Source: Dentipellis sp. KUC8613 (lineage: Eukaryota; Basidiomycota; Agaricomycetes; Russulales; Hericiaceae). Taken from it: a stretch of DNA of 44,081 bases. The notes below the pieces were generated by a model. It worked only from the letters and a program-made list of their open reading frames with translations, was not told where the DNA came from and made no database searches. The position numbers and the translations under genes are program-made. Positions 3,301-41,253 of the stretch are shown in pieces (position 1 is the stretch's first letter; every line of letters starts with the position of its first letter). Location: the NCBI GenBank assembly GCA_002286715.1, contig NSJX01000040.1, forward strand, positions 1 to 44,081. The letters run 5' to 3'.

Positions 3301-3324
3301 ATGTCGAGGGCGACATTGAACTTA

Positions 3325-3336
3325 GCGGAGGGGTAA
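3325..3336 (+). other. polypurine tract of the retroelement
   Basis: A purine-rich stretch (gcggaggggtaa) lies immediately before the TGTTATG that begins the LTR. This is the usual place of the plus-strand primer for reverse transcription. The call depends on the LTR boundary being right. Confidence 0.5.
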
Positions 3337-3729: not shown

Positions 3730-5831
3730 GCCCTTCCGCTTCTTCTTCGGCTTCTCTTCTACTTTCTCCGATATATGGTGCTGTGGAGAAATTACATGGG
3801 AGTTCCGCCACCCACTGATGGACGGCGCGCTCCCAGACATGTCTAGTGAGGAGTTGACTGGATGGCCATGCGCATTCTCGCGTTGAGACGCAACGCTGAG
3901 ATGATAGAGTGAGCGCTGCGCACAATGCAGAGAGAAAAGGCACATACTGCATATCGACCATACTCCCAGAGAATCCAGATGGCGCGAAACTCGGCGCAAA
4001 GCTCTCCTGGCTGCGCCATCCGCTGCCAAATGACCGTCAAAAGAACCTCGTGCGGCGATTCGGCGACGACAGCGTGCTCTGCATATCCGACATCGACGCC
4101 GAATACGCCTGCGGCCGGCCAGGTGACGGATACTCGATGGGAGCGGTGAGCGTACTCGACGGCCGTGGCGACCGGGACTGAGAATAGCGATTGTTGGATG
4201 TCACACCGAGGTGGAACCCGCTGTCCATGTGCGAGAGCGGGCTGCCGGTCGAGTACACCGATGCGACGTCGTAGACGGAGCCGCGCGAGGACTTGCGCTG
4301 CCGCGCCCGCTCCTGCTTCTGCTCCTTCCGGCGCCGCTCCCGTTCATCGCGCTCCTCCCGCTTCATGTCGACGTGCTCGACGATCATGCCGTTCTCGAGC
4401 AGCGTCACCTCGCGCGGGTGCGAGCTCGCGATCGTCGACGAGCGCGGCGCCTTGATGCGCACGCCATCCGAGCCGTCGGTGGCCGTCACGGCGCTGCCGA
4501 GCTCGTACGCGGAGCGCCGCAGCTGCGAGTACGTGTCGTGCATCCGGTCGTCGAGCTGCTGCGACTCCTGCATCGCGCGCATGTGCGCGAGCGTGTCCGC
4601 CTTGGCGAGCGACCGCTGCGAGCGCACGTAGTTCTCCAGCGCGGCGCGCTTCGACGTCGGCTCTTTCGGATTCTGCGCTTTTCATCAGTAAGCAACACAG
4701 GCGCGGAACAAAGACGACGAGGCGCGCGCACCAGGCTGATCCACAGCTTCATGTTCTGTTCTGTGAGACGCCCGCCGCGAGCGCGCGGGCGATCGGGGTC
4801 GGCGGGGGGCGCGCCCGACGCCTCTTCCTCCTTCTCCTGCCGCAGCAAGTCCTGGTAGTACACGTCGCTGTCGCGCTCCCACACCCCAGGGCCCGTCACG
4901 TCCACGTCCGCCATGTCCTGGTCGCGCATCGCGCACTCGACGCACACCTCCTCGACGGGCGCCGGGGCCGGCGGCGGCGGGGAGAAAACAGGGTTGATCG
5001 GGTCGGGCGTCGCGGCGACGGGCGTGATGTACGTCGGCTGCTGCGCGGGCGCACGCAGGCCCGGCGACACGGGAATCGGGATGGGCATCGTGCCGCCGTA
5101 GCCCGACATGCGCGGCGGCTTGTTGCTGTAGCTCGGGCTCTGCTGGTGGCTCGGCCCCGCTCCCATGCCCACGCCGGCCGCGGGGTACGAGGCGTGCCGC
5201 GAGGGCGCGGTCAGCTGGGCCTCCTGCATCCCGTCGTGGTCGGGTTGCCAGGTCGCCCGCGCCGCGGCGTTGCGGTCCTGATGCGCACGCGCGTCGCCTG
5301 CGCCGGGGGGCAGCCGGCCGGCGTTGGGGTCGCTCGAGCCGTACGAGGAGGGAAAGGCCTGGTAGGTGTCGTTGTAGGTGTATTGTTCGTTGGCGCGTGG
5401 GGGCGCGGGGGAGGGATATGAATGCGAGTTGCGGTCGCCGTTGACGTTGACGTTGGCGTGTCGCGGGGGTGATTGGTATTCGGCTTCGGGCTCGTCGCGG
5501 TATGTGTACTGCTCGGCAACGTGGGGTGCGGGCTGGTGCGTGTCGTACATCGGCAGGGAGCCGTTGAGATCTGTTGGGTCTTACAGTTGCGCTTGTAGGT
5601 TGTGACGTTTGTTCTCGTACATGTCGGCGGAGGGTTCGGTGGAGATGTGTTGAGCTTCGTTCAGGGACTGCTGGGCATATGGGGGTGCTGCGAGAGGGTT
5701 GGGTAGTGATTGCCCTTGACGTCGAGGTCCGTGATGGCAAGGCCGCGGGTGTACATGGACATTACGTTGACAGCGACCCCGTTGTAGGAGGATGAGGGGT
5801 TGTCGGCGGGTGAATGAACGGCAGTCGCCAT
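3730..5831 (-). pseudogene. broken copy of the unknown protein gene at 39157-42540
   Basis: On the minus strand the ATG is at 5831-5829, exon 1 ends at 4732, exon 2 is 4672-3948, and exon 3 starts at 3895 and is cut at 3730 by the LTR. Intron positions and lengths equal those of the intact copy. Three defects are visible. One C is missing from a C-run (G-run 5681-5685 on plus), which shifts the frame after about 48 codons. A TAA lies in the ancestral frame at 5583-5581, where the intact gene has a Gln codon. The retrotransposon removes the last about 430 codons. The splice sites remain intact. Some long open stretches remain (for example 5550-4733) because the sequence is GC-rich and recently decayed. 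Confidence 0.9.
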
Positions 5832-6108
5832 GAAGGACGACGCGAGAAATTTACAAAGGCAAGCGACTGGGTGGAAAGGAGATCGTGATGTAGGCAAAGA
5901 TGGTGGGTGGGGCAGTGAGGATGAGATCCGAACGGCGTAGACAAAAGACCACGAGGGTGAGTGGACCTGAAGACGACGAAGGATACGAAAAGTGGAGGAG
6001 AAAGAAAAAGAGAGAGGAGGATGAGGATGAGAGCAAAGGAGGAGAAGGTCTGCTCAGAGTCGGGACTTGACTTTGCGTCGGACTCGTTCCGAGCGGGGAT
6101 TGAACAGG
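3730..6108 (-). repeat. inverted duplication, left arm
   Basis: This 2,379-bp segment matches 38850-41253 in opposite orientation. It holds the upstream region, exon 1, intron 1 (59 bp in both), exon 2, intron 2 (52 bp in both) and the start of exon 3 of the gene. Similarity starts at CCTGTTCAATCCCCG (rc of 6108 and inwards; right arm 38850) and ends at the LTR. Visible differences include scattered substitutions, a deletion of about 30 bp in the upstream region near 6068, a 6-bp difference in a Val-Asn/Ala-Asn tract and a 1-bp deletion in a G-run. It is an old duplication, not two identical copies. Confidence 0.93.
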
Positions 6109-6174
6109 GTGTACCCTATGTAGTAGTACGAACCCGTTCGTCATTGACACCATCTCCGCGCGGTCTCGCACAAC

Positions 6175-6321
6175 ATGTCTACCCCATTCATACTCAGTAC
6201 CCAGCCCGGCTTCGAAGCTCTCGCAGAATTCATAGGCGCATTGCACGCGTTCGCCAAAGAGAGCTCGCCCGAGCCCGCCCCTAATCCACACGATCAAGAT
6301 CAAGACGTCGTTTCAGGATGA
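6175..6321 (+). CDS. 48-codon ORF beside the duplication breakpoint
   Basis: A short frame starts at ATG 6175 (context CACAACATGT) and ends at TGA 6319-6321. Its product begins MSTPFILSTQPGFEAL and ends Asp/Gln-rich. It begins 67 bp beyond the point where similarity to the right arm stops. Codon use looks like that of neighbouring genes, but I recognise no family. It could be a small gene, a first exon, or a gene fragment cut by the duplication. Confidence 0.25.
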   Translation: MSTPFILSTQPGFEALAEFIGALHAFAKESSPEPAPNPHDQDQDVVSG

Positions 6322-7685
6322 TAACTTTGAAATTTGTCGGAACTTCAATAATGCTGCCTTTTGAGAGACAGATAATCACTGCGTTAGAATATCCTCATAC
6401 CCCATCCTCTTACTCATACCATTTTCAATGCTTCTACTGTACTTCTGCCGCTAATTTGCATGTAGGATATGCGGCTTTCGTAGTTTCGTACAGGTGGGAC
6501 GATGCGGGAGGATAGAAAGGTATGGAGTTGGGTAGTCTACAATGCGGTCATGCATGGTCGTGAATTTCGTATGCACAAGCATAAGATTCCAACGCAGCTG
6601 GTTTCTATCGGAGGAGCATCGGATCCTAAGGGAAGAATTGACAATGAACAGTTTGCACGCATAAAATAGAAATGAGCCGAGCTCACAGGCTGATCAGAGA
6701 AGGTACCTCGTCATTCGTGCCGGCGCATGGCATGTAAGTCGCCTAGGGGCGATGAACTGGGGTAATTGATTTGCAGCGGATGACTTTTACAATGAACATG
6801 TTCTTCTTAAGTATCGTGGTCGTTATGGTCGTGCATCTAAACACCCGTCAGCGTCAATCCCAGTCACAGAAAGAACTTCAGGAACCGACTTACGGGCGTG
6901 GAAGTTGCAGCGGTGCGAGGTTGCCAGTGACCCCGGGCCTTCTATGGTATAATACAATGATGATGATGGCGTTGAAGGAAATGAACGACTGCAGCTAGTG
7001 AGGCTCTCCGTAACACAAGCGCGCTTCTATGATAGTGAAAGCATAGAAGAAAGGGCTGGGGCAGAGCGAATTTAATACACCATTCGGGCCAAGATACTGG
7101 CTGACCTACGTGCAGGTCCAGTTCGGACAGCTTGTCTCTCCGTGGATCAGAAAATGCATCGGGGCGCGGCCGCGGATAGTACCCCTGGACGAACAGCCTT
7201 CGGAAGTGCGGATGAGACTATTTGGTCTGAAGGACGAGGCCAATCGAATAAACATATGGATGAAAGTTACGATGATCACTCACCTAATCGATAACACACG
7301 CGACCATTATCTTCATAGATTTGCCACCGCAAACCAGAATATGAACACGCTCGTGTGATTTCACGATTCTAGACAACAGGAAGCAAAGAAAATTACAGCA
7401 CAGACAAAACAGTTCCGAGTCATAGCACGGTGTGGGTGAGTAAGTTCCATCCAGTATTGTGAGGAAGATAATTAAGCTAGAAGAGTGTGATGCAGTGATC
7501 TCAGAATCTATAGTTCCGCCGAAACTCGTACAGACAACAGATAACAATCATCCACCATTGACAACGGGTCATATTTCGTCACAAGGTGTCCGGGATCCGG
7601 AGGAAATCTGGATAGCAGGTCGTCAGCATGGAAATCAAGGTTTTGAAAAGGGGGTGACGATGGCCGATGCTCACTTGGATGCACC
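6322..7685. other. intergenic stretch without recognised gene
   Basis: About 1.36 kb between the small ORF and the SSU1-like stop codon. It is less GC-rich than its surroundings. It holds only short open frames without family motifs (for example 7110-7358). I see no LTR ends, tRNA or clear repeat. Part of it must be the 3' UTR of the minus-strand SSU1-like gene. Confidence 0.5.
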
Positions 7686-9249
7686 TCAATGAGCATCTTC
7701 ACTGCCTTCGGCAGGCGCACCCTTCAGTGCGGAGGAAGTTCCACTTACAGGTGCATTCATATCAAGCGCCTTCCCATTCGCATCGACCAGCTCCCCGTTC
7801 CGCTTCTCATTGGACCGCTGGCACAGCGGCGTGACACCCATGTCTATGTCTTCAAGACACGGCGCTTCGAAGATCTCCCCGTACCGCACCATCCAGAGCG
7901 TCCGCAGAAACACGGCTGTCCACAGTGCCAACGTGATCGCGCCGTAGATGGCGCCCCATACACGGAAGAAGCGGGCATTAAACACACGGTAGAGTTCGAT
8001 CGTTAGATTAGCGTAAACGCCCTGTAAGAAACTTCGAGTCAGCACGCGATGCGAATGCACATAGGAAGAATACTGACGTTCGGGAAAATAAGACCCCAGA
8101 AAGGCACCTTGAAGGGAAACCTCGATTGCCGCACGACTTGCTGCACGCCCAAGAGCGCATATATGAGCCACATTGTCGACAGCGACCATAGGCCGAACCC
8201 GATGCACACGCAAACCCCGTAGATAATTTCGCCTATTTGGGTGCTCCCGAGGAACGGCGAAATGCTGCCGGCGACAGGCAAAAACTTCTGGAATATTTGT
8301 CCAATGAGCAGGAAAGAGAACCCTGCTTGGCCGGTCGGACCCAGAGGCACGAAGCAGGAGATAACACTGGCGCCAGGTGGTGGGCCGTGGACCATGAGGC
8401 GGTATAAATAGATGGTGAGGATCATCAGCGCCAGCGACAGACCGATCGACACCATGAATACACAGAAGGTGACAGTGATGAGTGCGTGTACGGGGGAGAT
8501 AGGGTGCATGGCGGAGGCGATGACATCCCCGGTGGAAGACGCGACGATGAGCGAGACAACGGGAAGAACCCAGACGGCAGTCATAGTCTTGAGACTGTGA
8601 TCTTGGTAAACAAACCTTCAGGTATATGTTAGTACACATAGAGAGGAGCCAGCAAGAGAAGAAGCTTACGCGACGTGGATCAAAGCCCAGCAGCAGAGGA
8701 TAGAAACGGCGACGTCGAGCCACCAGAAGGCCCAGATGGTATACAGAAAGCCAGTCCCACCAAATCCATAGGTATTATAGAACAGGGTGATAGCAACGGT
8801 GAGGATCGTCGCACCACCCATTGGGAAACAACCTAGATAGAGGCTCTGCACCGGATGCCGGATCATGAGGGACCATATGTCGGGGAATGCGATATATCGC
8901 AGTATCGTGGTCGTCGTGAATATGACGAAGAGAAGCAGGTTGAGGAAGAAGAAGATGGCGCTCATGACCCGCATTCCATCTGTCTCATTGCCGTAGGGGT
9001 AGTTCTGAAAGAGGATGGAGACGGCTCCGGTACCTGTAAGGTGAGAGTATTTGATCAGAACCATGGTTTAGGTAGACAACAGAGATGGTAGATGCGAGTG
9101 TGATCCTTACCCATGTTGACAGCGAACCATGCTGGCGTGAAATGGCTGCATGATCAGAAGAGGGTCAACCAAATGCAGTCTATGCGCAGTATAGCATAGA
9201 TGACGCACCGAACGCTGCCTTTGACGTCTTTCCGGCGGACTGAAGACAT
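7686..9249 (-). CDS. SSU1: SSU1-like sulfite efflux pump (TDT transporter family)
   Basis: Five exons on the minus strand (9249-9209, 9145-9111, 9033-8670, 8615-8078, 8021-7686) encode 437 aa, the usual size of fungal SSU1. The protein carries family signatures: HFTPAWFAVNMGTGAVSILF at residues 15-34 in the first helix, TAVWVLPVVSLIVASS in the middle, FVPLGPTGQAGFSF, and PFWGLIFPN at the exon 4/5 border. About ten hydrophobic segments make it a plasma-membrane protein. Known members export sulfite and belong to the tellurite-resistance/dicarboxylate transporter family with malate permease Mae1. The ATG is chosen because exon 1 (MSSVRRKDVKGSV) joins the first helix in frame and lies about 95 bp after a TATATAAA box (minus strand, 9348-9340). 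The C-terminal about 50 residues are hydrophilic. Substrate is inferred from family, and a malate or other anion transporter is possible. Confidence 0.88.
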
Positions 9250-9771
9250 TTCTGCCGCACAAAGTCAACGGGGGGACGTAAATGGCCTCTGAGGCGAGCG
9301 AGAAGAAGGATGGAGGGCGATTTCGGAGGGGGTGTGGTGTTTATATAGACGGCAGCTGGCTGTCCCCACCGAGTTTTCGCGAATTCGGAATTCCTAGTCA
9401 AGTGGCCCCAGCACGCCGCAGTCGCCGTGATAACGTCGATAACGCATACAAGAGGGAGTTGGAAAACACATCCGTCGAGAAAGTGGATTGTTTGGACCCA
9501 CGAGGAGGAGGAGGAGAGGAAGTTGCGGGGAAAGAGCTATTGGAAATGTTGGGTAGCTGGATGCGAGCGAGCAGCCAATCAGAGCAGCTCGGGAGACCCG
9601 GTCCAAAAGGTGTCATGGGTTCCCACGCCCTTGACGCGGTCGAAGCACCAGCACCAACCAAGAGACTTGCTCTCGCGGTGAGGACGGCCTCCCCGCTGTG
9701 CTCACAGCCTGTATAAATCTCCTGTTCAGAGCTACTCAGTCGTGAACCCATCCTTCTTTGTTACTCTCATC
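9250..9771. promoter_or_regulatory. divergent promoter, SSU1-like gene and 9772 gene
   Basis: A 522-bp intergenic region separates the ATGs of two divergent genes. On the minus strand TATATAAA lies at 9348-9340, about 95 bp before the SSU1-like ATG. On the plus strand TATAAAT lies at 9712-9718, 54 bp before the ATG at 9772. Purine-rich GAGGAGGAGG repeats are at about 9501-9520. I see no specific operator. Confidence 0.6.
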
Positions 9772-11599
9772 ATGCCTGTCCTTGACTTTCTCTCACCCAA
9801 GTTATCCAAGTCAACCGATGTTGTAAACGTGATTGGTAGTCCCACAGAGAAGAGTGCTGCTCGCACCACCGATGGTACGTTTCGTTCTCTACGCGAAGAA
9901 TAGGTAGGCTTACGACTCAATAGATACCCACTTGACTCCACAGGTCTCTGCGTTGACGTCGACTTCTGCCGACTCGCAGAACGCGTCTCCCGAAGCTCCC
10001 AAGCGCCCGGTCTCCCAATGGCGTCGTACTCTTGCGTATCTGAACCCGCCGCATGATCCTCACAAGCCCGTCCTGTCGACCGAGCAGGACCAGGAGAAAC
10101 GCCGGCTCGCTCTGAATGCATACGAAGTCGTGAGGCACGCGTCGATATTTCCGAACTCTGACCGCAAAGCAAAGCAGTCCGCTCTTGTCGTGCGTTCCGT
10201 CATGGTTGGCCCAGGTAGTATCTCGCCGACCCCGCGCAAGGGCCCAGCCAAGTCGGCTGTCACCAAAGAGCAGGTCAACAAAGTCAAGGCTCAGTTGCTG
10301 CAGCCGAAGGGTGCGAACAGGATTATCGCGCAGCTCAAGGCCCTTCCCGCAGTTCCAACCGAAGTGCCTGAAGGAGCTCCGGCTTCTGTAAGAAAGGGAG
10401 ATACGCTGCTGGCTGGAATGCCTATTCATGCTGTGTGTTTGTCTTTGGGCGAAGAGGAGGCAGACAAGAAAGCATTTTGCCGCTTGAAGGAGACGTCCGC
10501 TCCTCCCGCATCAGATGCGGGCGCGACAAGAGAGAAGGGTATCACCATGGAGGCTATCAAATCTACGCTGCCAAGTGTCGCCACGGCGAGTGTCGACTCC
10601 TTAGTCGAGGCGTTCAAAGACATGCACTTGATTAGTCTGGTAACGGCTCCTGATCTTGGACTCGGCCAGCCCGGCGATGGTCCTGGTCTTCTTGCCGGCG
10701 CAGTCCCCACCGCAGAGACCGTCTTGCAAGGCTTCGAGCAGATCACTCCGCAGTTGATGGCTTTGGGCTACGCGACTGGAAAGGCGGTATTACCGGACCA
10801 TACAGGTGTATACCCTCCTACCGACAGGATCTCTGTTCTCACTTGTAAGTCTAGGTTGCATCCTTGTAAGCTGCTGGGAGTAATCAGCATACACTTCTAG
10901 ATTGGTGGGGTCTTGAAGTCGTACTTCCGCCCGTCACTTTGTCTTATCTCGACGTAAGTATTCGTTCAAATCGAGATTCTTAAACTAATTGCGCATCTCT
11001 GGTTTAGCGAGCTGAATCTGTCTCGCATTCTGTAATGAACTTCTTGACTGCCTTGGGCGTCATATACAACGGCGTCCGCGAGATTCTCCCCTTCGTTCGG
11101 TACATCTCCCAGTATATGGAGTTCGAGTTCACATCCATAAAGAAGGAAGACAGAGGGAAAGGCGTTGTCTGCGCTGCTACCTGGTAAGCTTCTCCAGGCT
11201 TCAGCCTTCACTCCGTCTGACTCAAACGTCCTTCACTCTCGCAGGATCATGCCAGCTGCACTGGTGCCTCGCCCATGGGACTTCCCTCCTCGGCCACCAC
11301 CTAAGCCCGAAGTTACCAATGGGAACCCAGTTTCCCCTACTCCGGCTGAACCTGCATCAACTCCCCCCGAGCCTGCTGACACCGCTCCGGCCCTGCCTCC
11401 TTTGCCAGACAGCCCGACGCCTCCCATCACCATTCCCGCTGAACCTGAGGCGGAACCGAAACCCGTTCCCGAAGCCCCTCAGCCCGATGTCGCATCGCCG
11501 GTCGTCCAGCCTCCTGTGTCCGTCCCCGAGGTCACGATTGTTCCACCCACCCTTCGCGCGCACTCTCCCCAGTCTATTCCGATCCCGGCCGATGCCTGA
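9772..11599 (+). CDS. basidiomycete protein of unknown function
   Basis: Five exons (9772-9874, 9924-10844, 10901-10953, 11008-11183, 11245-11599) join in frame to 535 aa. All four introns are 49-61 bp with GT-AG ends. I recognise no named family. The N-terminal 60 residues are Ser/Thr-rich. A basic stretch with QWRRTLAYLNPPHDPHKP and QEKRRLALNAYEVVRHASIF follows, then a long Ala/Pro/Lys region. The most conserved-looking block is encoded by exons 3 and 4 (YWWGLEVVLPPVTLSYL; ALGVIYNGVREILPFVRYI; CAATWIMPAALVPRPWDFP) and contains one or two amphipathic or weakly hydrophobic helices. The last 100 residues are Pro/Glu-rich and probably disordered. It shares a promoter region with the SSU1-like gene, but shared function cannot be inferred from that. 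Confidence 0.8.
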
Positions 11600-11942
11600 T
11601 TACAGGCGCTCCGTCGCTATACGTTTCGCTTTCGCGCGCATTCTTGTTTCATCTCTCTAAGGACCGTCTCCATCTCTATTGTTGATCGTGATGATTGTTG
11701 ACCGGACTTTACGACCTCTGACGACTTTCGGATCCCAAGCTAGTGTCATGCACCCGTAACGACCCGCATATACCCATCCACTACATTATACCTGTGTATT
11801 TATCACCTTCCATTTCTCCGAATATGCATACAGTCGTAGAATTACACCTTCAGACCACTTCCGCGTTCGTACATACACCCAATCGCCTTCCATCGTCTCG
11901 ACAGGTCCCCTTATCATATCAATAAGTCATGAGTTAGGACCT
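11600..11942. other. convergent 3' intergenic region
   Basis: 343 bp between the ends of two converging genes (9772 gene and the I9 inhibitor). It is T- and C-rich and probably holds both 3' UTRs. I see no further feature. Confidence 0.5.
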
Positions 11943-12406
11943 TCACTGCGTCTTGACGACACCATCGGGCTCTGCACATTCACGATCAGCCTAATCTTTG
12001 GACGGTGGAGGTGGAACGGGTACGTACCGATGTAGTCGATGGGGCCGCTCTGGAGGTTGGACTGCAGAGTCTGCAGGTACTGATCAGGGATCTGCGCAGA
12101 GAAGCCCTGTGGAACTCTAGATCAGCGCGCCATCTCTTTCTTTACAAGCACCGTGTCATACCTTCAGGAGGGGGGTGAAGTGGTCGTGCACGGTGCCACC
12201 TGCCAAATCGCGTCAATAAAACCCATTGAACGGCCATCGAGATGCACAGACCGTTGGTGGAGACATCGTTGGCGTACTTCTCGATGTCCGCGTCGGTGGC
12301 GGTCTTCTTGAAGACGACGATGTACTCTGCGATAATGGTGTTTAGCGTCCCCGATCTCGATGATCAGCCGGCGTATCCGCATGCAGAGCGACGTACTTCC
12401 GGACAT
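11943..12406 (-). CDS. I9-type subtilisin propeptide-like proteinase inhibitor (POIA1/PBI2 type)
   Basis: Five small exons (12406-12397, 12326-12252, 12199-12162, 12106-12028, 11971-11943) are spliced across introns of 70, 52, 55 and 56 bp. They give 76 aa, the size of Pleurotus inhibitor POIA1. The sequence starts MSGKYIVVFKKTATDADIEK, then has GGTVHDHFTPLLKGFSAQIP, and ends IDYIEPDGVVKTQ. The KYIVVFK strand, the central KGFSAQIP strand and the C-terminal IEPDGVV strand are the marks of the I9 domain, which is the propeptide fold of subtilases. Such proteins (yeast Pbi2, POIA1) inhibit subtilisin-like vacuolar proteinase B and act in the cytoplasm or vacuole. There is no signal peptide. The first exon encodes only three codons and one base, so the gene is easily missed by predictors. 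A TTATAA lies about 70 bp upstream of the ATG. Confidence 0.88.
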
Positions 12407-12907
12407 GGTTGTTCTGGGTGTTCTAGTTGTTCTGAGGGCTTGTGTGAGGCGTATGTTGGGGGATGTAGGACGGGTTATAAGGATCTGATACGACTGCGCA
12501 GCTGCAGAGGGCTGTCCTTCGTCTGCACCAATTGAGCAAGCACCACTAGGCGCCCGCCTATGATGCAATAGCTGTGTCCGGAAAAGGAAAGACCAGTATG
12601 TGCGGGCTGCGGCCACCTTCATCTAATCTTATCTTTCCTCCCTACCATCACCCCCAGCTGACTGATTTACCCGCTGGGAGATATCTACAAGTATCTAACA
12701 GCAACTGTACGCCCTTTTACGTCTCTTTCTTCGCGTCAGGAAGCATCTCGACCTCGACTGGATATGGACTTAGGTTTGGAAGTGCATGTGCCCAGGAACA
12801 TAACGCAATGGGGTCCGCAGTCCGTCCATCACACGTTCAGTATTAAATAAACGGGACATCAGAAGCCTCGCGGCCCTCGACGCCCCTTCTCTCGACCAAG
12901 AGTCGCC
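12407..12907. promoter_or_regulatory. divergent promoter, I9 inhibitor and beta-lactamase-like gene
   Basis: 501 bp between divergent start codons. TTATAA at 12475-12480 lies about 70 bp before the inhibitor ATG (minus strand). An AT-rich TATTAAATAAA at 12840-12850 lies about 60 bp before the ATG at 12908 (plus strand). I see nothing else that can be named. Confidence 0.45.
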
Positions 12908-14955
12908 ATGCGAGTTAGAACTCGAGCTCTCCTCGTCGCGTGTCTCGTCAGTAGCTCGTTATGCGGGCATTCGCAGTCAACGCTCAGCGCGCCGGCTGGC
13001 ACTACATTGCAGCACAAGAATGCCATAACGCCTGAGCTGTCGAAGTACATCGACGAAGCGCTGCGCAGCGACACTATCCCTGGCTTGGCTTTGGGTGTAT
13101 TTCATGCGGACGGGGAGAGCGAGTTTGGGACGTGGGGTAATAAGACGGAGGATGGGGAGGCGATGAGCACCGACGTACGTTCTCTGCACGAACCGTTTGA
13201 GTTGGGTGGTGTTGACGGAAGCTGCAGACTCTGTTTATTATGGCATCCTGCTCGAAAGCTTTCCTTTCTGCATCTATCGGGATTTTGATGGACGACTACG
13301 CGCACGGGCGGAACGCGACGCTCCTGCCTGCGGGCGTCACGACGTTCAACTGGGATACGAAAGTTAAGGATATCCTGCCGGGGGAGTGGGGGCTCATGGA
13401 TGAGTGGGCAGATGCGAAGGCATCTTTCCGGGATATTTTGTCGCACAGATCTGGCGTGCCGAGGTCAGTCCAAACGTCCGAACCAGACTCCGAGAATCCA
13501 CAGTTTGAACTACGCTCCTCAGGCATGACTTCTCGTATGGTCCACAGGACTCGGCGAAGGATGTGGTCAGGAGGATGAAATACCTCCGGCCCGCGTTCGA
13601 ATTGCGCGAGAAGTGGTCCTACAACAATCTAGTGAGAGCTCTGTCTTCGTCGCGACATAATTCATAAACTCATCTTGTTGTGTAGTTTTACATGCTTGGA
13701 GCCCACTTAATCTCCAAGTACACGGGATCATATACGCAATTTGTCCAGGACCGTATATTTGACCCTCTCAATATGACCTCATCGACCTTCTCTCCTGGCA
13801 AGGCTGCGAGCTCAGGAAAGCTGACACAGACCTGGACAACTTTTGGCAGACGCATCCCTGTATGGTTCACGGAGGAAAATGCGGAGCTCAGCAGCGGCCC
13901 GGGTGGTATCATTTCCAATATTAAAGACTTGGTGCGCGATAATTCAGAGCTCTTCATCGACTCTGAATGAGGACTGAGTGCAGCGACGTCCAGGAACACT
14001 GGGTCCGGACGCTCATGAATCATGGAGTTGATCCCCGCACGAACCGCACCATTATCCCTCGCTCGGTCTTCGACGTCGTCACCACTGCGCAGGCGATCGT
14101 CCACGGCGAGGGCTCCGCCGTGACATCTATCTCGGGCTACGGCATGGGCTGGGGACGTTCGTCCTACTACGGGCATGATGTATGCGTGATTCTGCGTATC
14201 GCAGGGACCACACACTGAATCCCTATACATAGATCATTGAGCACAGCGGTGGCATCCCAGGAATCTCGACTTTGGTCACATTCTTGCCTGCCGAAGGCCT
14301 CGGCTTCGTCATACTCACGAATGCGGACACAAAATCCTTCACATATAACGATCTTCCCCAGCGCATCGTCCGCGACGTATTTGGCCACTCAGAACACAAG
14401 CCGGAAGACTTGGTCCCCCAACGCGCACCCCACACCACATCGTCGCCGGAATCGTCACAACTGTATCCAACCAGAAATCGTCAAGATTCTCACATTCCTC
14501 TTGATGCATACGCAGGCACCTACGGCAATGCCGGCTACGGTTCTTTAACGCTCTGCGCACCCTCGAGCACTTCAGCGCCCTGTGCCAAAGTGCTAGCCGA
14601 ATTCGACGCCATCGATGCCGCAGGAGGGTGGTCCGCTCGCTTTAATGGCTCAGCGCAGCTGTTTGCGTCCTGGGAGCGCCTCTGGAGCTCACATCTCCGC
14701 CTTGTGCATCTTTCCGGAAACAAGTTCGCGATGTTCCCCACGAGTTTGTTCCCGCAGGGTTATGGGAGGGATACGACTCCGTTTGAGACTAGCGATGCGC
14801 TCCTGAGAGACCTTGGGGGCGAGCCAGCGGTCGAGTTTGTGGTTGGGGCCAATGGAAAGGTCGTAGGTGGGGGATTGAACGGGTTGGTGGAGCAGGTCGG
14901 AAAGAAAGAAGGCACTGTGGAGGAGACGGCGGAAGCGTGGTTTGAGAAGGCGTAG
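12908..14955 (+). CDS. secreted serine beta-lactamase-like hydrolase (class C/esterase type)
   Basis: Six exons (12908-13174, 13228-13463, 13523-13631, 13686-13931, 13994-14179, 14233-14955) give 588 aa. The start MRVRTRALLVACLVSSSLCG is a typical signal peptide. The serine beta-lactamase motifs are present: S96-C-S-K99 at the start of exon 2 (catalytic Ser and Lys), Y201-N-N at the end of exon 3, and H352-S-G-G at the start of exon 6 in place of KTG. Other family blocks are FRDILSHRSGVPR and GPGGIISNIKDL. The C-terminal about 150 residues form an extra region common in fungal members. Fungal relatives are esterases or peptidases of unknown substrate; true penicillinase activity should not be assumed. 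Each intron fits GT-AG with preserved frame, so the gene appears intact. Confidence 0.87.
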
Positions 14956-15370
14956 GATATCATCCCCTGCTTTCCGTTTGATTCCACGTTCTGAAATGCT
15001 GCACTACTATTTTTTTTCGCATGGCTATGGTCGTGTATGTACGTACGAAAAGAAGTAGTTGAGTTGCGCATGCTTGAATTCATGCGAGGACTTGATCCTA
15101 ACACTGTCTCGGCAACTCCCGAACAGAATTGACTTTGTCATCGTCTGTAAGCTGGCACTGACCAAGCCGACCCTTGCCATTGATTTGCGGCCGCTCATTA
15201 GGTCGCCAGCCATGGGGCGGCTCCGATAATTGACTCGCTTGTGAACCAATATCGCGTCCTCATTTCATAGCACTTCAGACGCGTCGCCAGCGCGTCGTAT
15301 GCTCCTCATACCCCATCTTGTGAGACGACTATCATCTAGCCCAACAGCACTCTTTTCTCTCCGCAGCAAC
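14956..15370. other. intergenic region
   Basis: 415 bp between two plus-strand genes. It holds the 3' UTR of the beta-lactamase-like gene and the promoter of the glycosylase gene. I see no TATA box or repeat worth naming. Confidence 0.5.
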
Positions 15371-23960: not shown

Positions 23961-24143
23961 CGGCGTGGAGAAGGTCTCTTCTCACTCCAAGCGGGCCCAG
24001 CGAACCCGGAAACGATGAATGGATGCCTGTCAGATTTACCGTCCGCTGGTCAGCCCGCCATGCATGAGCATATATCAAACGACCAGAGACGCACGAGTAA
24101 ACCCAACCCCGGCCCATTTCATATCGCGCAGCGTTCAATATCC

Positions 24144-26349: not shown

Positions 26350-26731
26350 ATGGGGTGGGTCAGGTGTATTCTCTGAAGCAATCCATCTTTCATATAACGT
26401 TGTGAAGTGAAATTGGGTTAATCTAGTCTTTCGCGCAGTGAATTTGCGGTGATTGATGGAATTGGATCAGAAAGTGAAGGCTCTTCTTGCCGTTGCACGT
26501 CATCAGAACCCATTATTAGATCCGAATGGCACGGCCATTCTGTAAACAAGGGAGGCCCGAGAGGCACGCTTTGCAATTATGATCAGGCCTCGAACGGTCA
26601 GGCCAGTCACCTGGCGTTCCTTATCCTTCCAGTAAGGTTTCATAGTGATGGCCTCAGCCGCCGAGTATTTATTGTACCAGTACTTATGACCTGCTCGTGA
26701 CGACGGCTTCGGAGAAGACAGCCTCGTAGTC
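26350..26731. promoter_or_regulatory. intergenic region and promoter of P450-C
   Basis: 382 bp between P450-B and P450-C. TATTTATT in GAGTATTTATTGTACC at 26666-26673 lies about 60 bp before the ATG at 26732 and resembles the elements before copies A and D. Nothing else is recognised. Confidence 0.6.
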
Positions 26732-28893: not shown

Positions 28894-29375
28894 TTAGTGC
28901 CGTGTATATTTCCTGTATGCATATGGATAGGGCAGAACGGTAGTTAAATTATACGATTGTGTCAATTAGATCGACGAGTGGCGGCCAGAGTTTGAGCTTA
29001 TTCGTCGTCCAGACTCTACACCCTCTGAACGGTGGCCCGGTTCAATCGGAAGCTGCGTAATCCTCTGGCTGTGGGTTGATTGTGTGAGCCGATACTCGGA
29101 ACTGGTGGGAGCGAGTCACTTCTACGAGTCCTGCATCTCGCCAAGCTAGAGGCAGCCAGGGGTGCATCGGGAAGCGCACTACCACCGCTTCACCGAATGG
29201 TACCATTACCCGAGCGTACACAAGCGTCATAAGAGATTCTTCAGCTCAACCCTCTTCCGCCGAAAGAGGACGTAAGATGTCCATTAAGCTCACCGAAGCA
29301 TGCTCATAAGTATTTATACCCAAGTCGAACGATATTCTGCGTCGTCCTACACCCCTTCGACTCCTCACGTCGGCG
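28894..29375. promoter_or_regulatory. intergenic region and promoter of P450-D
   Basis: 482 bp between P450-C and P450-D. TATTTATA in AAGTATTTATACCC at 29311-29318 lies 58 bp before the ATG at 29376 and matches the element before P450-A at 12 of 14 or more positions. The rest shows nothing I can name. Confidence 0.6.
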
Positions 29376-31566: not shown

Positions 31567-31839
31567 ACGGTCCGCGATAAGCACAGAGGGAATTCCGGAT
31601 TAGCTGTCAGAGTATATTCCTTGTAGAGTCAGCGTTGTCGTCTGTTGTGAATGGCTAGAAATCTCACAAAGGCGAAGTCGGATCTAGTACGAGTATGTCG
31701 GAGCCTGTGTAAAATGATCTCCTTCGTCGTTGTCAATCAGCCGCGAGTAGAGAACATCAGGTCAATGGAAACGTAGAGCACATACGGGCTTATCTCTGGT
31801 CGAGCACCTGCTTCTGAAAACCCCACCATTCCGTACACC

Positions 31840-32569
31840 ATGCCGCTCACAGACCAAGACGCCAAAGGGCTCGCTCTCGCTCTCGTGCAAGCCCGCACAA
31901 GCTATGCGCAAGGCGGCATACCCATCGGCTCAGCCCTCCTCGCGCCCTCATCTTCCCGCGAAGCAAGCTCGGATGCGCCAGACCCGGGGTTCAAAGTGCT
32001 CGGCGCAGGACATAACCAGCGCATGCAGAAGTCATCAGCGACGTTGCATGCAGAGATCGCGGCACTCGAGGATGCGGGGCGGCTGAAGGCGGACGTGTAT
32101 AGGGGCGCTACGTTGGTGCGCCTGAGACCGTGAAAATGTTCGTATATGCGTCTGATTGACCTCCAACTTCAATTCTCTTGGTGGCAGTATACGACATTGA
32201 GGTAGGTGTGTGCGGAAAGTAGCGACGAGCGTGAAGCTAATGGTGCACACATTGAATGTGCAGCCCGTGCAGCATGTGCACTGGCGCGGCGCTCCTGTAC
32301 GGCATCCCGCGTGTCGTGATCGGCGAGAACGTCAATTTTGTCGGCGGCGAGGACTTGCTACGAGCTCGAGGAGTTGAGGTGGTCGTCGTGGACGATGCGG
32401 ACTGCAAGGCGCTCATGGCAAAGTTTATCGAGGAGAAGCCCGAGGTGAGTCTTTCCGCCATTTGTTTGCGTCGTCGCGACTCGCGGCCCACATACATTGT
32501 ACGTTAACCATGTCGTTCTCTTCCACAACACGATAGATCTGGTACGAAGACATCGGGCAGACAGAATAA
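31840..32569 (+). CDS. FCY1: cytosine deaminase, FCY1-like
   Basis: Four exons (31840-32115, 32188-32201, 32264-32444, 32537-32569) give 167 aa, close to yeast Fcy1 (158 aa). The zinc and catalytic site is complete: H70-A-E72 in TLHAEIAALE and S97-P-C99-S-M-C102, with Glu72 as proton shuttle. The blocks LLYGIPRVVIGENVNF and IWYEDIGQTE at the C-terminus are typical of fungal cytosine deaminases. The enzyme converts cytosine to uracil and ammonia in pyrimidine salvage in the cytoplasm. Exon 2 is only 14 nt (YTTLS) yet is needed to complete the zinc site. The region of residues 40-50 is a family-variable Ser/Ala-rich loop. No relation to the neighbouring P450 array is apparent. Adenosine or guanine deaminases share the fold but lack the WYEDIG ending. 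Confidence 0.93.
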
Positions 32570-33064
32570 AGCGGTACACGTCCTTGATGTATGTGAAGGA
32601 GACATAAAAACGAGTGACGGATCCGAGTCGATTGCATTGCGTTTCGCCTTGAGCTGCATTTCTATATTTTCGAGGTCTTCAAAAGGTCCGCACTCTGTTC
32701 ATGATCTGCGTCGTTAACCGTCGTAGGAAATATGACTTGTAGTGACTGTCACTAGAGCTGCAAGCCATGCAGATGCTTGGGCGAAAGCAAAAAAGAAGTG
32801 ACCACCACATCTGAAACACTCCTCACGTCCACCACAACGTCTGGCTCTCCCCGTTACATGGGGTCTACCATACGAACTTCTGTACCAGATCTATGCGACA
32901 CCGCCTGCCGGAGGCATATCTGACGCCATGGGTTCGGCTGCCACGAACCCGGTTTGATTCCGGCCCACCCGTGTCTACAGCCGCTCTGAACCACCTACAG
33001 CCCTACATATGCTCCCCAATGTATACTATTCGTTACTGCCATACCCATCTGCTCTTTACCCAAG
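32570..33064. other. intergenic region
   Basis: 495 bp between the deaminase and the aspartic protease. It must contain the 3' UTR of one and the promoter of the other. I see no clear TATA box, repeat or RNA gene. Confidence 0.5.
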
Positions 33065-34732
33065 ATGCGCGCAGGTTTCCTCATCCTCTTCACCCTGCCC
33101 GCTGCCTTCGGCGCGGTCCCGCGCACAATCCAGCTCTCCGCGCGCCGAAACCCAGGCTCCATCTCGAAGCGCAACAACGGCGCCCCCATCCGCAGTGAGC
33201 CACTCTGGGATGACTACCGCGGAACCGACCTGCAGTACGTCTTCGCGCACCATTTATCCATTTTCACGACTCACCGACGTGGCACTGCCGTGCGCATTGG
33301 CAGATGGTACGGCCAGATCAGCTTCGGCACGCCGCCGCAGGCGTTCAGCGTCGTCTTCGACACGGGCTCGTTCGCGACGGAGGTGCCTGGGATCCAGTGC
33401 GGCTTGGAGTGCGCGAACGTGCACAAGTTTGATTATACGGCGAGCTCGACGTTCGTCAATCTGACGAAGACGGGGCAGCTGAAGTTCTCGACTGGAGGAG
33501 GCGTGGCGGCCAGTGCGTTGCTTCTCTCTCTTCTCTATCATTCGCTGCACTAGACCGGGGGACTTGTATGTTTCTCACCGGCCTTGTTAACTGACGCACG
33601 CGCGTATTAGGTGTCTGTGCATTATCTCTTCCCTGGCATGCTTTTGATATTGATATGCGCGCTGTTGCTACCAGGACTACGAACAACTCGACGTACTAGC
33701 GGTCAACGACACAATGTCCATCCTGGGCCTTTCGCAGCCCAACTTCACATTCTACCTCATCACCAACCAGACTGCTGGATTCGTGCGTAGTACCCTGCCC
33801 TACACACACGGCAGCGTTGCACGCTGACCGATCTTCACTCGTCCCAGGTCGGAAACCCCTACGACGGCATCGTACGTCCTCCCCTCTTTTGCAATACATC
33901 TTCACTCAATCCTCTCTGGTACAGGTTGGCATGGGCTGGCAGCCCTACGGCGGCATCTTCCCCGCCCTCCGCGCCGCGGGCCTCCCAGGTACACCCTCTC
34001 CCCACACCCCCACCCCATCCCTAACCCCGCACCCCAGCCGTCTTCTCTCTCTACCTGACCCCGCACACCGTGAACGGCGCGCAGCTGACGCTCGGGGGAT
34101 ACGACACGTCCAAGACGAACGGCGTCGAGCCCACGTACGCGGCGCTGCTCCCGCCGCCGGCATTCGCACCGGGCGCGGGCAACGGCTCGTACAACTACTG
34201 GTCCCTGCGCGCGGAGCACATCGACTCGAACGACCGGCGCGTGCCGCAGGCGCTGTTCGCGGGGCTCCCGATCATCTTCGACTCGGGCACGAGCAACATC
34301 GTCATGCCGCGCAACGTCACCGAGGTGCGCCTCCCTCCCTTCCTCATGTCTCAGCCGAACAGATCCACTGGAACATTGACGCCCGCCCGCGCATCCGTCC
34401 GCACGCAGGCCATCTACGCGCGCATCTCGCCGCAGATCAAGCCCCACGGCACAAAGGGCGCCTACGCGCTGCCCTGCGCCGCGCTCGCGAGCATGCCGTT
34501 CTCGCTCGTGTTCACGTTCACGGCGACGACGGGCGCGCCGTTCACGCTGAGCGTGCCGCGCGCGGAGCTGAGCGTCGGCCCGCTCGCGGACGCGCCGGGC
34601 ATGTGCCAGACGCTCGTCAACGCGCTCGACCGCGGCGTCGGCATCGTCGGCGGGTCGCTGCTCAAGTACTATTATTCCGTGTGGGACGTGGACCGCGCGC
34701 AGATTGGGTTTGTGCGGAATGAGTATGAGTAG
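33065..34732 (+). CDS. secreted pepsin-like aspartic protease (family A1)
   Basis: The start MRAGFLILFTLPAAFGAVP is a signal peptide, followed by a short propeptide. Exons supported by frame are 33065-33234, 33304 to 33502 or 33512, 33675-33782, 33848-33871, 33925-33988, 34038-34324 and 34409-34732, giving about 395 aa. The first catalytic motif is D76-T-G-S-F (F where S is usual), after QISFGTPPQAFSVVF. The second is DSGTSN in GLPIIFDSGTSNIVMPRN. Other family marks are FDGI-like NPYDGIVGMGW, TLGGYDTSK, and the C-terminal IVGGSLLKYYYSVWDVD with IGFVRNEYE. The enzyme should cleave extracellular protein at acid pH. The junction between 33503 and 33674 is unresolved: the simplest GT-AG choice loses a few residues, while others need a small extra exon of length 3n+2. 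The coding region is very GC-rich. Confidence 0.88.
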
Positions 34733-35285
34733 GGTGCCAGTGCGCGGAGAGGCTGTGGACTAGTACTACGTACGCGTAAGATAGTAGTTGAATGTTCGCG
34801 GTGTATGAGTCGGACTCTGCGTTTAGCCTAGAAGCGAAATGGTGCTACAATCGGAGTCGGCCAATATATCCTTCACGGCTACGAATACTCAGGATAACAT
34901 TCTCTAGGCAACCCACACTGGACCCCTTTCCTCGATTGAAACATCTACATATACGTCTCCATCGACATCCCAGAAACCCCAATGGAATAATACAGTATCG
35001 AAACCGAACAAATACTACGAGTACAACTACACATCTACAATCCACGATTACAATTCCAGTATAATGCTCAAGTGCTACAACGATGACGGAGACAATGATA
35101 AGGCTATAAAAAGAGAGACGCCGTTCCTCCCGGTGGTATAAATGTATGGTGCGCGATGGGTAATATATGATGTATGAAGAAAAAGAGGAATGTGGATAAA
35201 AAGAAATGCAGGGGATGGCGAAGGCGAAGGCGAGTCAACTACAAACGTAAGCAATGCATGCGCCCGTGGTAGAAAGGGCGACAGC
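34733..35285. other. convergent 3' intergenic region
   Basis: 553 bp between the ends of the protease gene and the minus-strand kinase gene. It is clearly more AT-rich than the flanking exons and probably holds both 3' UTRs. No repeat or RNA gene is recognised. Confidence 0.5.
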
Positions 35286-37190
35286 TCACGCCTGCGTCAC
35301 GTCCACATACATCGTGCCCTGCAGCCACGGGTGCGCGCGCACCTCCCCAATATCCGCGCGCTTCTCGGGCTCGGGCTCGAGACACCTGAGCATCAAGTCC
35401 GTCGCGAGCGACGGGATCTGGCTGCTCGTCGACACGCTGAGCACGACGCGGCCCGCGATGGCGTCGCGCTCCGTCGGGAACGGCGATGCCCCGGTGAGCA
35501 GGTACGACAGCAGCACGCCGAGGGTCCAGATCTCGACGGGCGGGGCCTGGTACGGCTTCTTCTGGAGGACCTCCGAGGCGGCGTAGGCGGTGGTGCCGAA
35601 AAAGAGGGTATAGTACGGCCGGGGCTCGGTGGGGTCTACCACGACGGCGCTGCCGAAGTCCACTAGCTTCACCTGTCAGATGTAAATTTATGAGAATGCA
35701 GAAAAAAGCGCGATTGAGCCGCATATATGGAGGCTATGACGCACACGGAGATCCTTGTCCACGAGGATGTTCTCGTCTTTGATGTCGCAGTGGCTGACGC
35801 CTTGGCTGTCAAGGTAGTGCACAGCCTCGACGACCTGGGCGAAGATGTACCGCGCCTGGTCTTCCGAGAGGCGCTTGTGGGCGGATTGCTCGATGCATTC
35901 GAACAGGTCGTGTGAAGGTCTGCGCACAAAGGACGGCCGCACTGCCGATGGCGAGGGCTCCAGATAAGTAGAGAAAGAGCGGTCGCAGTCCAAGTCGGTG
36001 CAAAAGTCCGGAGGACTGTGAAACGAGGAGTCGCCGGACGGGCTGCGGTTCATCAAGTGCCGGGAGGCGGAAACCTCTTCAATCTCGATGGAGAAGTCCA
36101 AAGGGGTGCTCGGGGGCAGCGGGATGTCGAAATCCGCGGACGGAGAAGGCGTAAGGGCGGGCGTCGATGCATAGGAAGACACAGATATCTTCCCAGGAGC
36201 TGTAGCCTGTCGGGGAGAGACATGGTCCTTATGCTTCACCCAGGGTGTGCCATGCAGCTCTTGGACCTGAGGCGTGTGTAAGTCAACAAATCAGGAAATG
36301 GGACTAATAAATTGGTAAATTACCAAATAAAAGTACAGGTCGTCTTCGAAGAGGTCGACACACTTGACAATATTATCGTGATCCAGGAGGCCGAGCAGCA
36401 GAGCCTCCGTCGGAACTTTGTTGCCGTGTTTGTCCTCCATCCACGCATGCGATGGAACCTTGTCTTTGATGATGAACTTGACGGCAACTTCAAGACCCTC
36501 AAGGCGCTGCCGGGCAGTCATCACGAAACCATATCCGCCGGCGCCGAGCTCATCCCCCAGTTGGTACCACTGGACGAATCCGGGGTTGAGATAGTGATCG
36601 GCTGGGAAACGCTCATTATATATGCGGGCGCGGGCGTTGGGGGTGTAGTCGGATTTGGAAGGCACGGACATCCGCGGACGAGAGGGGCGGCTGCGAGAAG
36701 GAGAAGCCAACTCTGGAGTGAACGCCAAAGAGTTCAGCTGGGTACAGGAGTAAGGGACGTGTGAGGAGGACTGAATTAGGAATGACGAGTCGCTAAAGTC
36801 GGCGGTCTCGTCCTTCAGAGGAGGGTTGTAATTATCGATGTCGAGATCGAAAGACAGAGAGTTGGAGGGAGAGAACGAATCGGGAGAATTATGTTGCTGT
36901 ACGGTAGGAGAAAACATGGGGGACAAAGGCGAGAGAGAATGCTCAACAAAAGATGGGTGGAGATGCTTTGTAGGAGCAGGCGAGAGATGGCGCGGCGATA
37001 CATGGTTGGGATCAGACAGGCGAGCACAGCGAGGCTTGTGAACGTGGCCATGGTCAAACAGGGGGGAGGAGTTGTGTTGTTCGAAGGGGGTATAAGGGGA
37101 ATCACCCTCGTCTGAGGAGTAGTCGGCGGGATGCATGTAGGGAGAGTAAAGGAAAGAGGGTGTCGCGGGGGAGACAGAAGCGCGGGGCAT
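35286..37190 (-). CDS. Ser/Thr protein kinase with insert in the kinase domain
   Basis: Three exons (37190-36324, 36266-35745, 35672-35286) encode 591 aa. Residues 1-200 are Ser/Pro-rich with many SP sites and probably disordered. The kinase domain follows: glycine loop GAGGYGFV (about 215), Lys in VAVKFI, and Glu in PTEALLLGLLDHDNIV. Between YFYL (289) and the helix before the catalytic loop there is an insert of about 100 Ser/Pro-rich residues. The catalytic loop is HCDIKDEN (about 448-455), with Cys in place of the usual Arg of HRD. The DFG motif is D468-F-G-S, followed by FFGTTAYAASE and EIWTLGVLLSYLLTG, where Glu replaces the usual Asp. The C-lobe ends LRCLEPEPEKRADIGEVRAH. It is CAMK-like, and the DIKDEN loop resembles PAS kinases and related fungal kinases. 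Catalytic residues are present, so activity is likely. Targets are unknown. An ATAAATA lies about 45 bp upstream of the ATG. Confidence 0.9.
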
Positions 37191-37633
37191 GGCCAACTAA
37201 GATTGAGAGAGGGTTAAGAGAGGCGGAGGAGTATTTATGCATAGCTCTCGCGCTCCATGTCAACATTGCAGCTGCCCATCGAATCTCTGCCACAACCGTT
37301 TGACTCCACATCCAAGACAGCTATGCAGCAGGAACCGTCTCCGTCTGACACCGCTCAAAGCGCTGTTGTAGTCTTGTAGCCTTACCTCTGAGACATTGAT
37401 AGAAACCGAGTGCAGTCGCAGTATTTGTAGCCGGGCGGGTACAGATAGGCAGGTCGATCCGAAGAGCCCATGCAAGCAAGTACTCGCCGGGTCGCATGGA
37501 TTCCTCTCGCGTCCTCCTTCGGAAGCGCCCGGCATCCGCCGCCACCAATCACCGTTCGCTTATTCAAGCGCCACGGCCTCTGCCGCCTTGCTCGACGCCG
37601 CCGCCAGCGACGACACTCCTCCTGTCCCTCACC
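37191..37633. promoter_or_regulatory. divergent promoter, kinase and complex I subunit
   Basis: 443 bp between divergent start codons. On the minus strand ATAAATA (37238-37232) lies about 45 bp before the kinase ATG. On the plus side there is no TATA; a C/T-rich stretch precedes the ATG at 37634, as in many housekeeping fungal genes. Confidence 0.5.
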
Positions 37634-38694
<1,061 letters not shown>

Positions 38695-38849
38695 GGACTG
38701 CGAAGGATTAGAGGGTGGCGGTCTTATTTAGTTTTATATCAGATATTTGCGTCGCATGACCTCGGATAAGGGATTGTGATGAGCGTTGAACGAGTGATTT
38801 ACATAAAAACGAGCGGCGGGACGGGATTCAGAAGCCATCTGGGGCAGGT

Positions 38850-41253
38850 CCTGTTCAATCCCCGCCCGGAACGAGTCCGACGCAAAGCCAAGCGAGTCCC
38901 CGACGTGCTGTGTCTCGCCAAGTCCCGACTCTGAGCAGACCTTCTCCTCCTTTGCTCTCATCCTCTTTCTCCTCTCTCTCTTTCTTTCTCCTCCTCTTTT
39001 CGTATCCTTCGTCGTCTTCAGGTCCACACACCCTCGTGGTCTTTATTCTGCGTCGTTCGGATCTCTTCCTCACCGCCCCACCCACCATCTTTGCCTACAT
39101 CACGATCTCCTTTCCACCCAGTCGCTTGCCTTTGTAAATTTCTCGCGTCGTCCTTCATGGCGACTGCCGTTCATTCACCCGCCGACAACCCCTCATCCTC
39201 CTACAACGGGGTCGCTGTCAACGTAATGCCCATGTACCCCCGCGGGCTCGCCATCACGGACCTCGACGTCAAGGGCAATCGTTACCCAACCCTGTCGCAG
39301 CACCCCCCACATGCCCGGCAGTCCATGCACGAAGCTCAGTACACCTGTGCCGAACCCTCTGCCGACATGTACGAGAACAACCGCTACGACCCACAAGCGC
39401 AATTCCAAGACCCAGCAGGTCTCAACGGCTCACGGCAGATGTACGACACACACCAGCCCGCACCCCACGCTGCCGAGCAGTACCCGTACCGCGACGAGCC
39501 CGAAGCCGAATACCAATCGCCCCCGCGACACGCCAACGCCAACGGCGACCGCAACTCGCATTCATATCCCTCCCCCGCGCCCCCACGCGCTAACGAACAA
39601 TACACCTACAACGACACCTACCAGGCCTTCCCCTCCTCGTACGGCTCGAGCGACCCCAACGCCGGCCGCCTGCCCCCCGGCGCAGGCGACGCGCGTGCGC
39701 ATCAGGACCGCAACGCCGCGGCGCGGGCGACCTGGCAACCCGACCACGACGGGATGCAGGAGGCCCAGCTGACCGCGCCCTCGCGGCACGCCTCGTACCC
39801 CGCGGCCGGCGTGGGCATGGGAGCGGGGCCGAGCCACCAGCAGAGCCCGAGCTACAGCAACAAGCCGCCGCGCATGTCGGGCTACGGCGGCACGATGCCC
39901 ATCCCGATCCCCGTGTCGCCAGGCCTGCGTGCGCCCGCGCAGCAGCCGACGTACATCACGCCCGTCGCCGCGACGCCCGACCCGATCAACCCCGTCTACT
40001 CCCCGCCGCCGCCGGCCCCGGCGCCCGTCGAGGAGGTGTGCGTCGAGTGCGCGATGCGCGACCAGGACATGGCGGACGTGGACGTGACGGGCCCTGGGGT
40101 GTGGGAGCGCGATAGCGACGTGTACTACCAGGACTTGCTCCGGCAGGAGAAGGAGGAAGAGGCGTCGGGCGCACCCCCCGCCGACCCCGATCGCCCGCGC
40201 GCTCGCGGCGGGCGTCTCACAGAGCAGAACATGAAGCTGTGGATCAGCCTGGTGCGCGCGCCCCGTCGTCTTTGTTCCGCGCCTGTGTTGCTTACTGATG
40301 AAACGCGCAGAATCCGAAAGAGCCGACGTCGAAGCGCGCCGCGCTGGAGAACTACGTGCGCTCGCAGCGGTCGCTCGCCAAGGCGGACACGCTCGCGCAC
40401 ATGCGCGCGATGCAGGAGTCGCAGCAGCTCGACGACCGCATGCGCGACACGTACTCGCAGCTGCGGCGCTCCGCGTACGAGCTCGGCAGCGCCGTGACGG
40501 CCACCGACGGCTCGGACGGCGTGCGCATCAAGGCGCCGCGCTCGTCGACGATCGCGAGCTCGCACCCGCGCGAGGTGACGCTGCTCGAGAACGGCATGAT
40601 CGTTGAGCACGTCGACATGAAGCGAGAGGAGCGCGATGAACGGGAGCGGCGCCGGAAGGAGCAGAAGCAGGAGCGGGCACGCCAACGCAAGTCGTCGCGC
40701 GGCTCCGTCTACGACGTCGCATCGGTGTACTCGACCGGCAGCCCGCTCCCGCACACGGACAGCGGGTTCCACCTCGGTGTCACATCCAACAATCGCTACT
40801 CCCAGTCCCGGTCGCCACGGCCGTCGAGTACGCTCACCGCTCCCATCGAGTATCCGTCACCTGGCCGGCCGCAGGCGTATTCGGCGTCGATGTCGGATAT
40901 GCAGAGCACGCTGTCGTCGCCGAATCGCCGCACGAGGTTCTTTGGACGGACGTTTGGCAGTGGATGGCGCAGCCAGGAGAGCTTTGCGCCGAGTTTCGCG
41001 CCATCTGGGTTTTCTGGGAGTATGGTCGATATGCAGTACGTGTCTCTTCTCTCTGCATTGTGTGCAGTGCTCACTCCATTATTCCAGCGTTGCGCTTCAA
41101 CGCGAGAATGCGCATGGCCATCCAGTCAACTCCTCACTAGACATGTCTGGGAGTGCGCCGTCCATCAGTGGGTGGCGGAACTCCCATGTAATTTCTCCAC
41201 AGCGCCATATATCGGAGAAAGTAGAAGAGAAGCCGAAGAAGAAGCGGAAAGGC
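38850..41253 (+). repeat. inverted duplication, right arm
   Basis: This 2,404-bp segment matches 3730-6108 in opposite orientation. It begins at CCTGTTCAATCCCCG (38850) in the upstream region of the gene and ends at the point where the left arm is cut by the LTR (GCGGAAAGGC, 41244-41253). The right arm keeps about 30 bp near 38900-38930 that the left arm lacks. The two arms enclose about 32.7 kb. Confidence 0.93.

What the first reader, a model, noticed from the sequence alone, without database searches (positions are those of the whole stretch)
3730..41253. About 2.4-kb inverted gene duplication bracketing about 32.7 kb with the P450 array
3730-6108 and 38850-41253 are the same gene segment in opposite orientation, with identical intron positions and lengths and clear but limited divergence. 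The arms enclose SSU1, the I9 inhibitor, MAG1, four P450s, FCY1, an aspartic protease, a kinase and a complex I subunit. Recombination between arms would invert the whole block, so strains may differ in its orientation. The transcripts of both arms point outward from the block.
Basis: seen in the sequence. Interest (0 to 1): 0.75.

Follow-up and report, generated by a model that had tools for sequence, protein, structure and literature searches.

The report
Broken inverted copy of a gene
A wood-decay fungus carries, about 33 kb from a complete conserved gene, a reversed second copy that is decayed and cut off by a retrotransposon; it looks like an ordinary duplicated pseudogene rather than a working DNA switch.

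Summary
3730-6108 and 38850-41253 are one gene segment in opposite orientation, 94.4% identical, both introns equal in place and length, the only 2 places found in the 34.1-Mb assembly. The right arm belongs to a complete 1090-aa gene with homologs across mushrooms. The left arm is a derived, broken copy: 1-bp deletion at codon 49, in-frame stops at codons 84 and 577, and a cut inside exon 3 exactly at the end of a Ty3 chromovirus LTR, 3337-3729. Its missing 3' part was not found elsewhere. Against Dentipellis fragilis, 25 of 32 residue or stop differences arose on the left, 1 on the right, 6 are unclear. D. fragilis has the complex I subunit next to this gene, so the right side keeps ancestral order. 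Most crossovers between arms would put the frameshift into the intact gene (inference). Homogenisation is not clear (one of four tests p = 0.016); no RIP-like signature. Most likely an ordinary duplicated pseudogene. One oddity: codons 129-576 look constrained.

The parts
3337..3729 (+). 3' LTR of a Ty3 chromovirus; its last base abuts the left arm
   Evidence: Of 14 matches elsewhere (own place and right arm not counted), 7 are near full length (94-96%), 8 end at window 3729 and 1 at 3730, and 7 begin at 3337; begins TGT, ends ACA
1..3336 (+). 3' part of the Ty3 element: RNase H end, integrase and chromodomain (ORF 52-1851) and an extra ORF (1990-3300); cut by the contig start
   Evidence: Pfam Integrase_H2C2, rve, Chromo; related pieces on C93 (94%) and C55 (92%); window starts at contig base 1
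3730..6108 (-). left arm: broken copy (5' flank, exon 1, intron 1, exon 2, intron 2, first 166 bp of exon 3)
   Evidence: 94.4% to the right arm; frameshift at codon 49, stops at codons 84 and 577, 30-bp deletion in the 5' flank
38850..41253 (+). right arm: 5' flank, exons 1-2 and start of exon 3 of the intact gene
39157..42540 (+). complete gene, exons 39157-40251, 40311-41035, 41088-42540, 1090 aa plus stop; exon borders set by me
   Evidence: open spliced frame with GT-AG introns (where exon 3 was taken one base too long); homologs; no Pfam match in its three ORFs
38050..38700 (+). last part (end approximate) of the NADH:ubiquinone oxidoreductase 20-kDa subunit gene, ancestral upstream neighbour of the intact gene
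   Evidence: Pfam Oxidored_q6 in ORF 38050-38361; same neighbour in the D. fragilis model P0121; 37200-38849 is single copy in the assembly
6109..7690 (.). sequence inside the left arm, not similar to the right arm's flank and found once in the assembly

Best explanation
A DNA-level (intron-keeping) copy of a conserved gene with its 5' flank was placed about 33 kb away in reverse orientation, after the split from D. fragilis. The right copy stayed intact. The left copy decayed by frameshift, stops and a 5' flank deletion, and a Ty3 chromovirus lies exactly at its cut end, most simply because it inserted into exon 3. Shown: the arms, the lesions, the LTR junction, the one-sided residue changes and the ancestral order on the right. 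Inferred: the event that made the copy (for example break repair), that the element inserted into it rather than arriving with it, and that the missing 3' part was lost or not assembled.
For: Arms 94.4%, introns kept. Lesions only in the left copy. 25 of 32 residue or stop differences derived on the left, 1 on the right, 6 unclear. The LTR ends at 3729 as do most other copies that reach that end and the arm starts at 3730. Complex I subunit next to this gene in D. fragilis. The D. fragilis read-through spans the stretch that the left copy lacks (30 bp), so that gap is a left-copy deletion (read by eye from P0121). Both arms share Leu405 where D. fragilis and three other genera have Ile. Remainder of the left copy not found elsewhere.
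Against: Codons 129-576 show 4 amino-acid against 22 silent differences, far from a 3:1 neutral ratio (p = 3e-10), so most of the divergence there arose while both sequences were under selection: the copy worked for a long time, or it derives from a divergent allele. If the element had inserted into a full copy, the far side should exist; a search for the target site joined to the LTR start (up to 2 mismatches) found 0 matches and the 3' remainder was not found. The silent changes could not be split between the arms, for want of outgroup DNA.
Confidence: 0.82

Rival explanations
1. The arms act as a flip-flop inverted repeat, so strains differ in the orientation of the 32.7-kb block, as in the Saccharomyces chromosome XIV region.
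For: Inverted arms with exact tracts up to 239 bp; one of four run tests for homogenised tracts p = 0.016. A yeast precedent with 4-kb arms around 24 kb (PMC9731477, abstract and one section).
Against: Right junction is in the ancestral order. The other three run tests were not significant (0.055, 0.11, 0.22). 81-86% of exact-match positions lie downstream of the frameshift, where a crossover would break the intact gene.
Confidence: 0.05
2. The left copy long worked, or still works, as a shorter paralogue started at the internal Met95 (conserved in D. fragilis) and ending at the stop at codon 577. This overlaps with the best explanation as to how the copy arose.
For: The frame from Met95 to the stop at codon 577 is open after splicing intron 1. 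Amino-acid against silent changes: 19 to 5 in codons 49-94, between the frameshift and Met95, but 7 to 25 in codons 95-576 (Fisher p = 3e-5). The contrast exceeds that of the right copy against D. fragilis (residue differences 18 and 3 against 9 and 11, p = 0.009).
Against: Codons 49-94 also evolve fast between the right copy and D. fragilis (9 of 46 residues). The 3' end is cut by an LTR. A copy taken from a divergent allele would give the same constraint pattern in codons 129-576. I had no expression data.
Confidence: 0.12
3. Assembly artefact: another haplotype's allele was joined to this contig at 6108.
For: 6-9% silent divergence with strong constraint looks allelic. The left junction is near a contig end in a repeat. 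No reads could be checked.
Against: The stretches tested beside the arms (6090-7690, 37200-38849) and the 3' part of the gene are single copy in the assembly apart from the arms, so no second haplotype is seen here. The left copy has lesions of its own and its inner flank is not the complex I gene.
Confidence: 0.08

Closest known systems
Duplicated (unprocessed) pseudogene
   Same: Introns and 5' flank kept, frameshift and stops, one-sided excess of residue changes, truncated
   Different: Inverted orientation 33 kb from the parent; codons 129-576 still look constrained
Saccharomyces chromosome XIV 24-kb flip/flop region (PMC9731477, abstract and one section read)
   Same: Gene-bearing inverted repeats around a multi-gene block; a Ty element or LTR interrupts one arm in three yeast strains
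   Different: There the 4-kb arms are almost identical, homogenised, and both orientations occur; here the arms are 94.4% identical, one is broken, and the right side shows the ancestral order
Ty3 chromovirus insertion into a gene
   Same: LTR terminus at the gene break, integrase with chromodomain
   Different: The other end of the element and any target-site duplication lie off the contig

Membership tests
Duplicated (unprocessed) pseudogene | Introns of the parent kept | tested here: met
   59- and 52-bp introns in both arms
Duplicated (unprocessed) pseudogene | Reading frame disabled | tested here: met
   1-bp deletion at codon 49, stops at codons 84 and 577, truncation at 3730
Duplicated (unprocessed) pseudogene | Relaxed selection on the copy | tested here: inconclusive
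   25 left-derived against 1 right-derived of 32 residue differences, 6 unclear, but dN/dS 0.24 overall and 0.058 over 440 codons
Flip/flop inversion polymorphism | Both orientations exist among strains | not testable with these tools
   No second Dentipellis DNA was available; D. fragilis protein P0121 supports the assembled order on the right side only
Flip/flop inversion polymorphism | Arms homogenised by recombination | tested here: inconclusive
   Run tests p = 0.22 and 0.11 on silent sites, 0.055 and 0.016 with the 5' flank
Ty3 chromovirus | Integrase with C-terminal chromodomain, and an LTR | tested here: met
   Pfam rve and Chromo in ORF 52-1851; repeated 393-bp LTR
Ty3 chromovirus | Target-site duplication at both ends | not testable with these tools
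   5' end lies beyond the contig start; 0 matches to target plus LTR start in the assembly

The most novel reading that the evidence does not exclude
The frameshift did not kill the left copy: translation moved to Met95 and a shorter paralogue was kept by selection while the stretch between the frameshift and the new start drifted, until (or even after) a stop and a retrotransposon gave it a new 3' end.
Probability: 0.12. Interest if true: 0.4.

Novelty: new member of a known kind. Interest (0 to 1): 0.2.

Why it matters
It shows that a long inverted repeat with clear arms need not be an invertible switch: one arm is a decayed copy, and inversion through most of it would damage a conserved gene. 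If the internal-start reading held, it would be an example of a frameshifted duplicate kept as a shorter gene.

Tried and rejected
Retrocopy: rejected, introns and 5' flank are kept. tRNA or known RNA at the boundary (a T-arm-like stretch near 38860 caught my eye): ARAGORN 0 genes (bacterial code, linear), Rfam 0 matches at gathering scores. RIP- or CpG-methylation-type decay: C:G to T:A differences at CpG 14 of 621 against 29 of 918 at other C/G, p = 0.35. Gene conversion: not significant on silent sites (0.22, 0.11); with the 5' flank 0.055 and 0.016, which I hold as weak because 5' UTR constraint could cause it. Rest of the left copy on another contig: not found. Papers: 35 papers held the terms, 20 listed; 9, 8 listed; 124, 10 listed; 20, 10 listed; by title and start of abstract none of those listed deals with this locus. 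Only PMC9731477 was opened (abstract, outline and one section). The Pfam scans covered 40 of the 140 ORFs listed, so gene names inside the block are partial. Rows dropped: residues 341-366 were masked in the D. fragilis comparison because that gene model looks mispredicted there, and codon 49 (gap) was not counted. A first Fisher test used a hand count of 10 for the D. fragilis differences in codons 49-94 (p = 0.02); the recount gave 9 (p = 0.009) and replaces it. One search also tested 3 left-derived changes against an assumed half of the silent changes (p = 4e-5); I do not lean on that assumption.

Full report
Observation. The two arms are real: 3730-6108 and 38850-41253 match in opposite orientation at 94.4% over 2411 columns, with 98 substitutions and three gap events of 30, 6 and 1 bp. 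They are the only 2 places found in the 34.1-Mb assembly. The window is the first 44,081 bases of a 258,017-bp contig.

The gene. The right arm belongs to a complete three-exon gene (39157-42540, 1090 aa, exon borders set by me). Its three long ORFs have no Pfam match. It has homologs across mushrooms: 359 proteins at E <= 0.001 among 7989 scored candidates for a C-terminal ORF, 120 listed, best Dentipellis fragilis at 94% over 76% of the query, and 186 among 7991 for the N-terminal ORF, 120 listed. The organism is therefore a Dentipellis or near relative (inference). An ORF of the adjoining retrotransposon has 2 relatives among 6544 scored candidates, both named Dentipellis sp. KUC8613.

The left copy. 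It keeps the start codon and both introns but has a 1-bp deletion at codon 49, in-frame stops at codons 84 and 577, and a 30-bp deletion in the 5' flank. It stops inside exon 3 at 3730, directly at the end of a 393-bp LTR (3337-3729). Of 14 LTR matches elsewhere, 8 end at that same base and 1 a base later; the other 5 are partial and do not reach it. The element carries integrase and chromodomain. The rest of the gene was found once only, in the right copy; besides it the search returned just the 55 bp at the left arm's own end.

Which copy is old. The D. fragilis model P0121 joins the complex I 20-kDa subunit to the N-terminus of this gene, reading through the spacer between them. The right side therefore keeps the ancestral order, and the spacer includes the stretch that the left copy lacks (by eye). 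Of 32 residue or stop differences between the arms, 25 are derived on the left, 1 on the right and 6 are unclear. Both arms share Leu405, where D. fragilis, Hericium, Artomyces and Auriscalpium have Ile, and agree against D. fragilis at 507, 647 and 649, so the copy most likely arose after that split. P0121 and P0001 come from two contigs, and that D. fragilis has a second copy cannot be excluded.

Selection. dN/dS between the arms is 0.24 overall and 0.058 over 440 codons. In codons 129-576 there are 4 amino-acid and 22 silent differences; in codons 49-94 there are 19 and 5. Silent differences are 43 of 711 sites without significant runs (p = 0.22 and 0.11); with the 5' flank added, 55 of 951, p = 0.055 and 0.016. 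So the centre of the gene was under selection on both sides for most of the divergence time, either because the left copy worked for long or because it was copied from a divergent allele. I cannot separate these without outgroup DNA.

Inversion. A crossover between the arms could invert the block. But 81-86% of exact-match positions (seeds of 20-100 bp) lie downstream of the left frameshift, and a crossover there would join the broken 5' end to the only complete 3' end (inference). With the ancestral order on the right, this speaks against frequent inversion; it does not exclude it. The known yeast flip/flop case has almost identical, homogenised arms (PMC9731477, abstract and one section).

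Verdict. An inverted, intron-keeping duplicate turned pseudogene beside a retrotransposon: ordinary, with one open point, the constraint in its central codons.

Noticed in passing
window 1990-3300 (+): Extra 436-aa ORF between the chromodomain pol and the 3' LTR of the Ty3 element, no Pfam family, 2 relatives found among 6544 scored candidates, both Dentipellis sp. KUC8613; similar pieces on contigs C93 and C55.
   Followed up: partly
D. fragilis protein P0121 (EVG20_g11688): The public gene model appears to be a false fusion of the complex I 20-kDa subunit with the neighbouring gene through the spacer.
   Followed up: partly
window 13216-13575 (+): ORF with a beta-lactamase-family (PF00144) match, not named in the finding.
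   Followed up: no
window 39301-39438 against 5553-5687: Codons 49-94 differ at 24 nucleotides between the arms (17% of 138), more than the silent rate overall (43 of 711); also a fast stretch between species (9 of 46 residues).
   Followed up: partly
window 6175-6321 (+): Short open frame (48 codons, read by eye) starting about 66 bp inside the left arm's inner end; possibly the cut start of another gene; 6090-7690 is single copy in the assembly.
   Followed up: no
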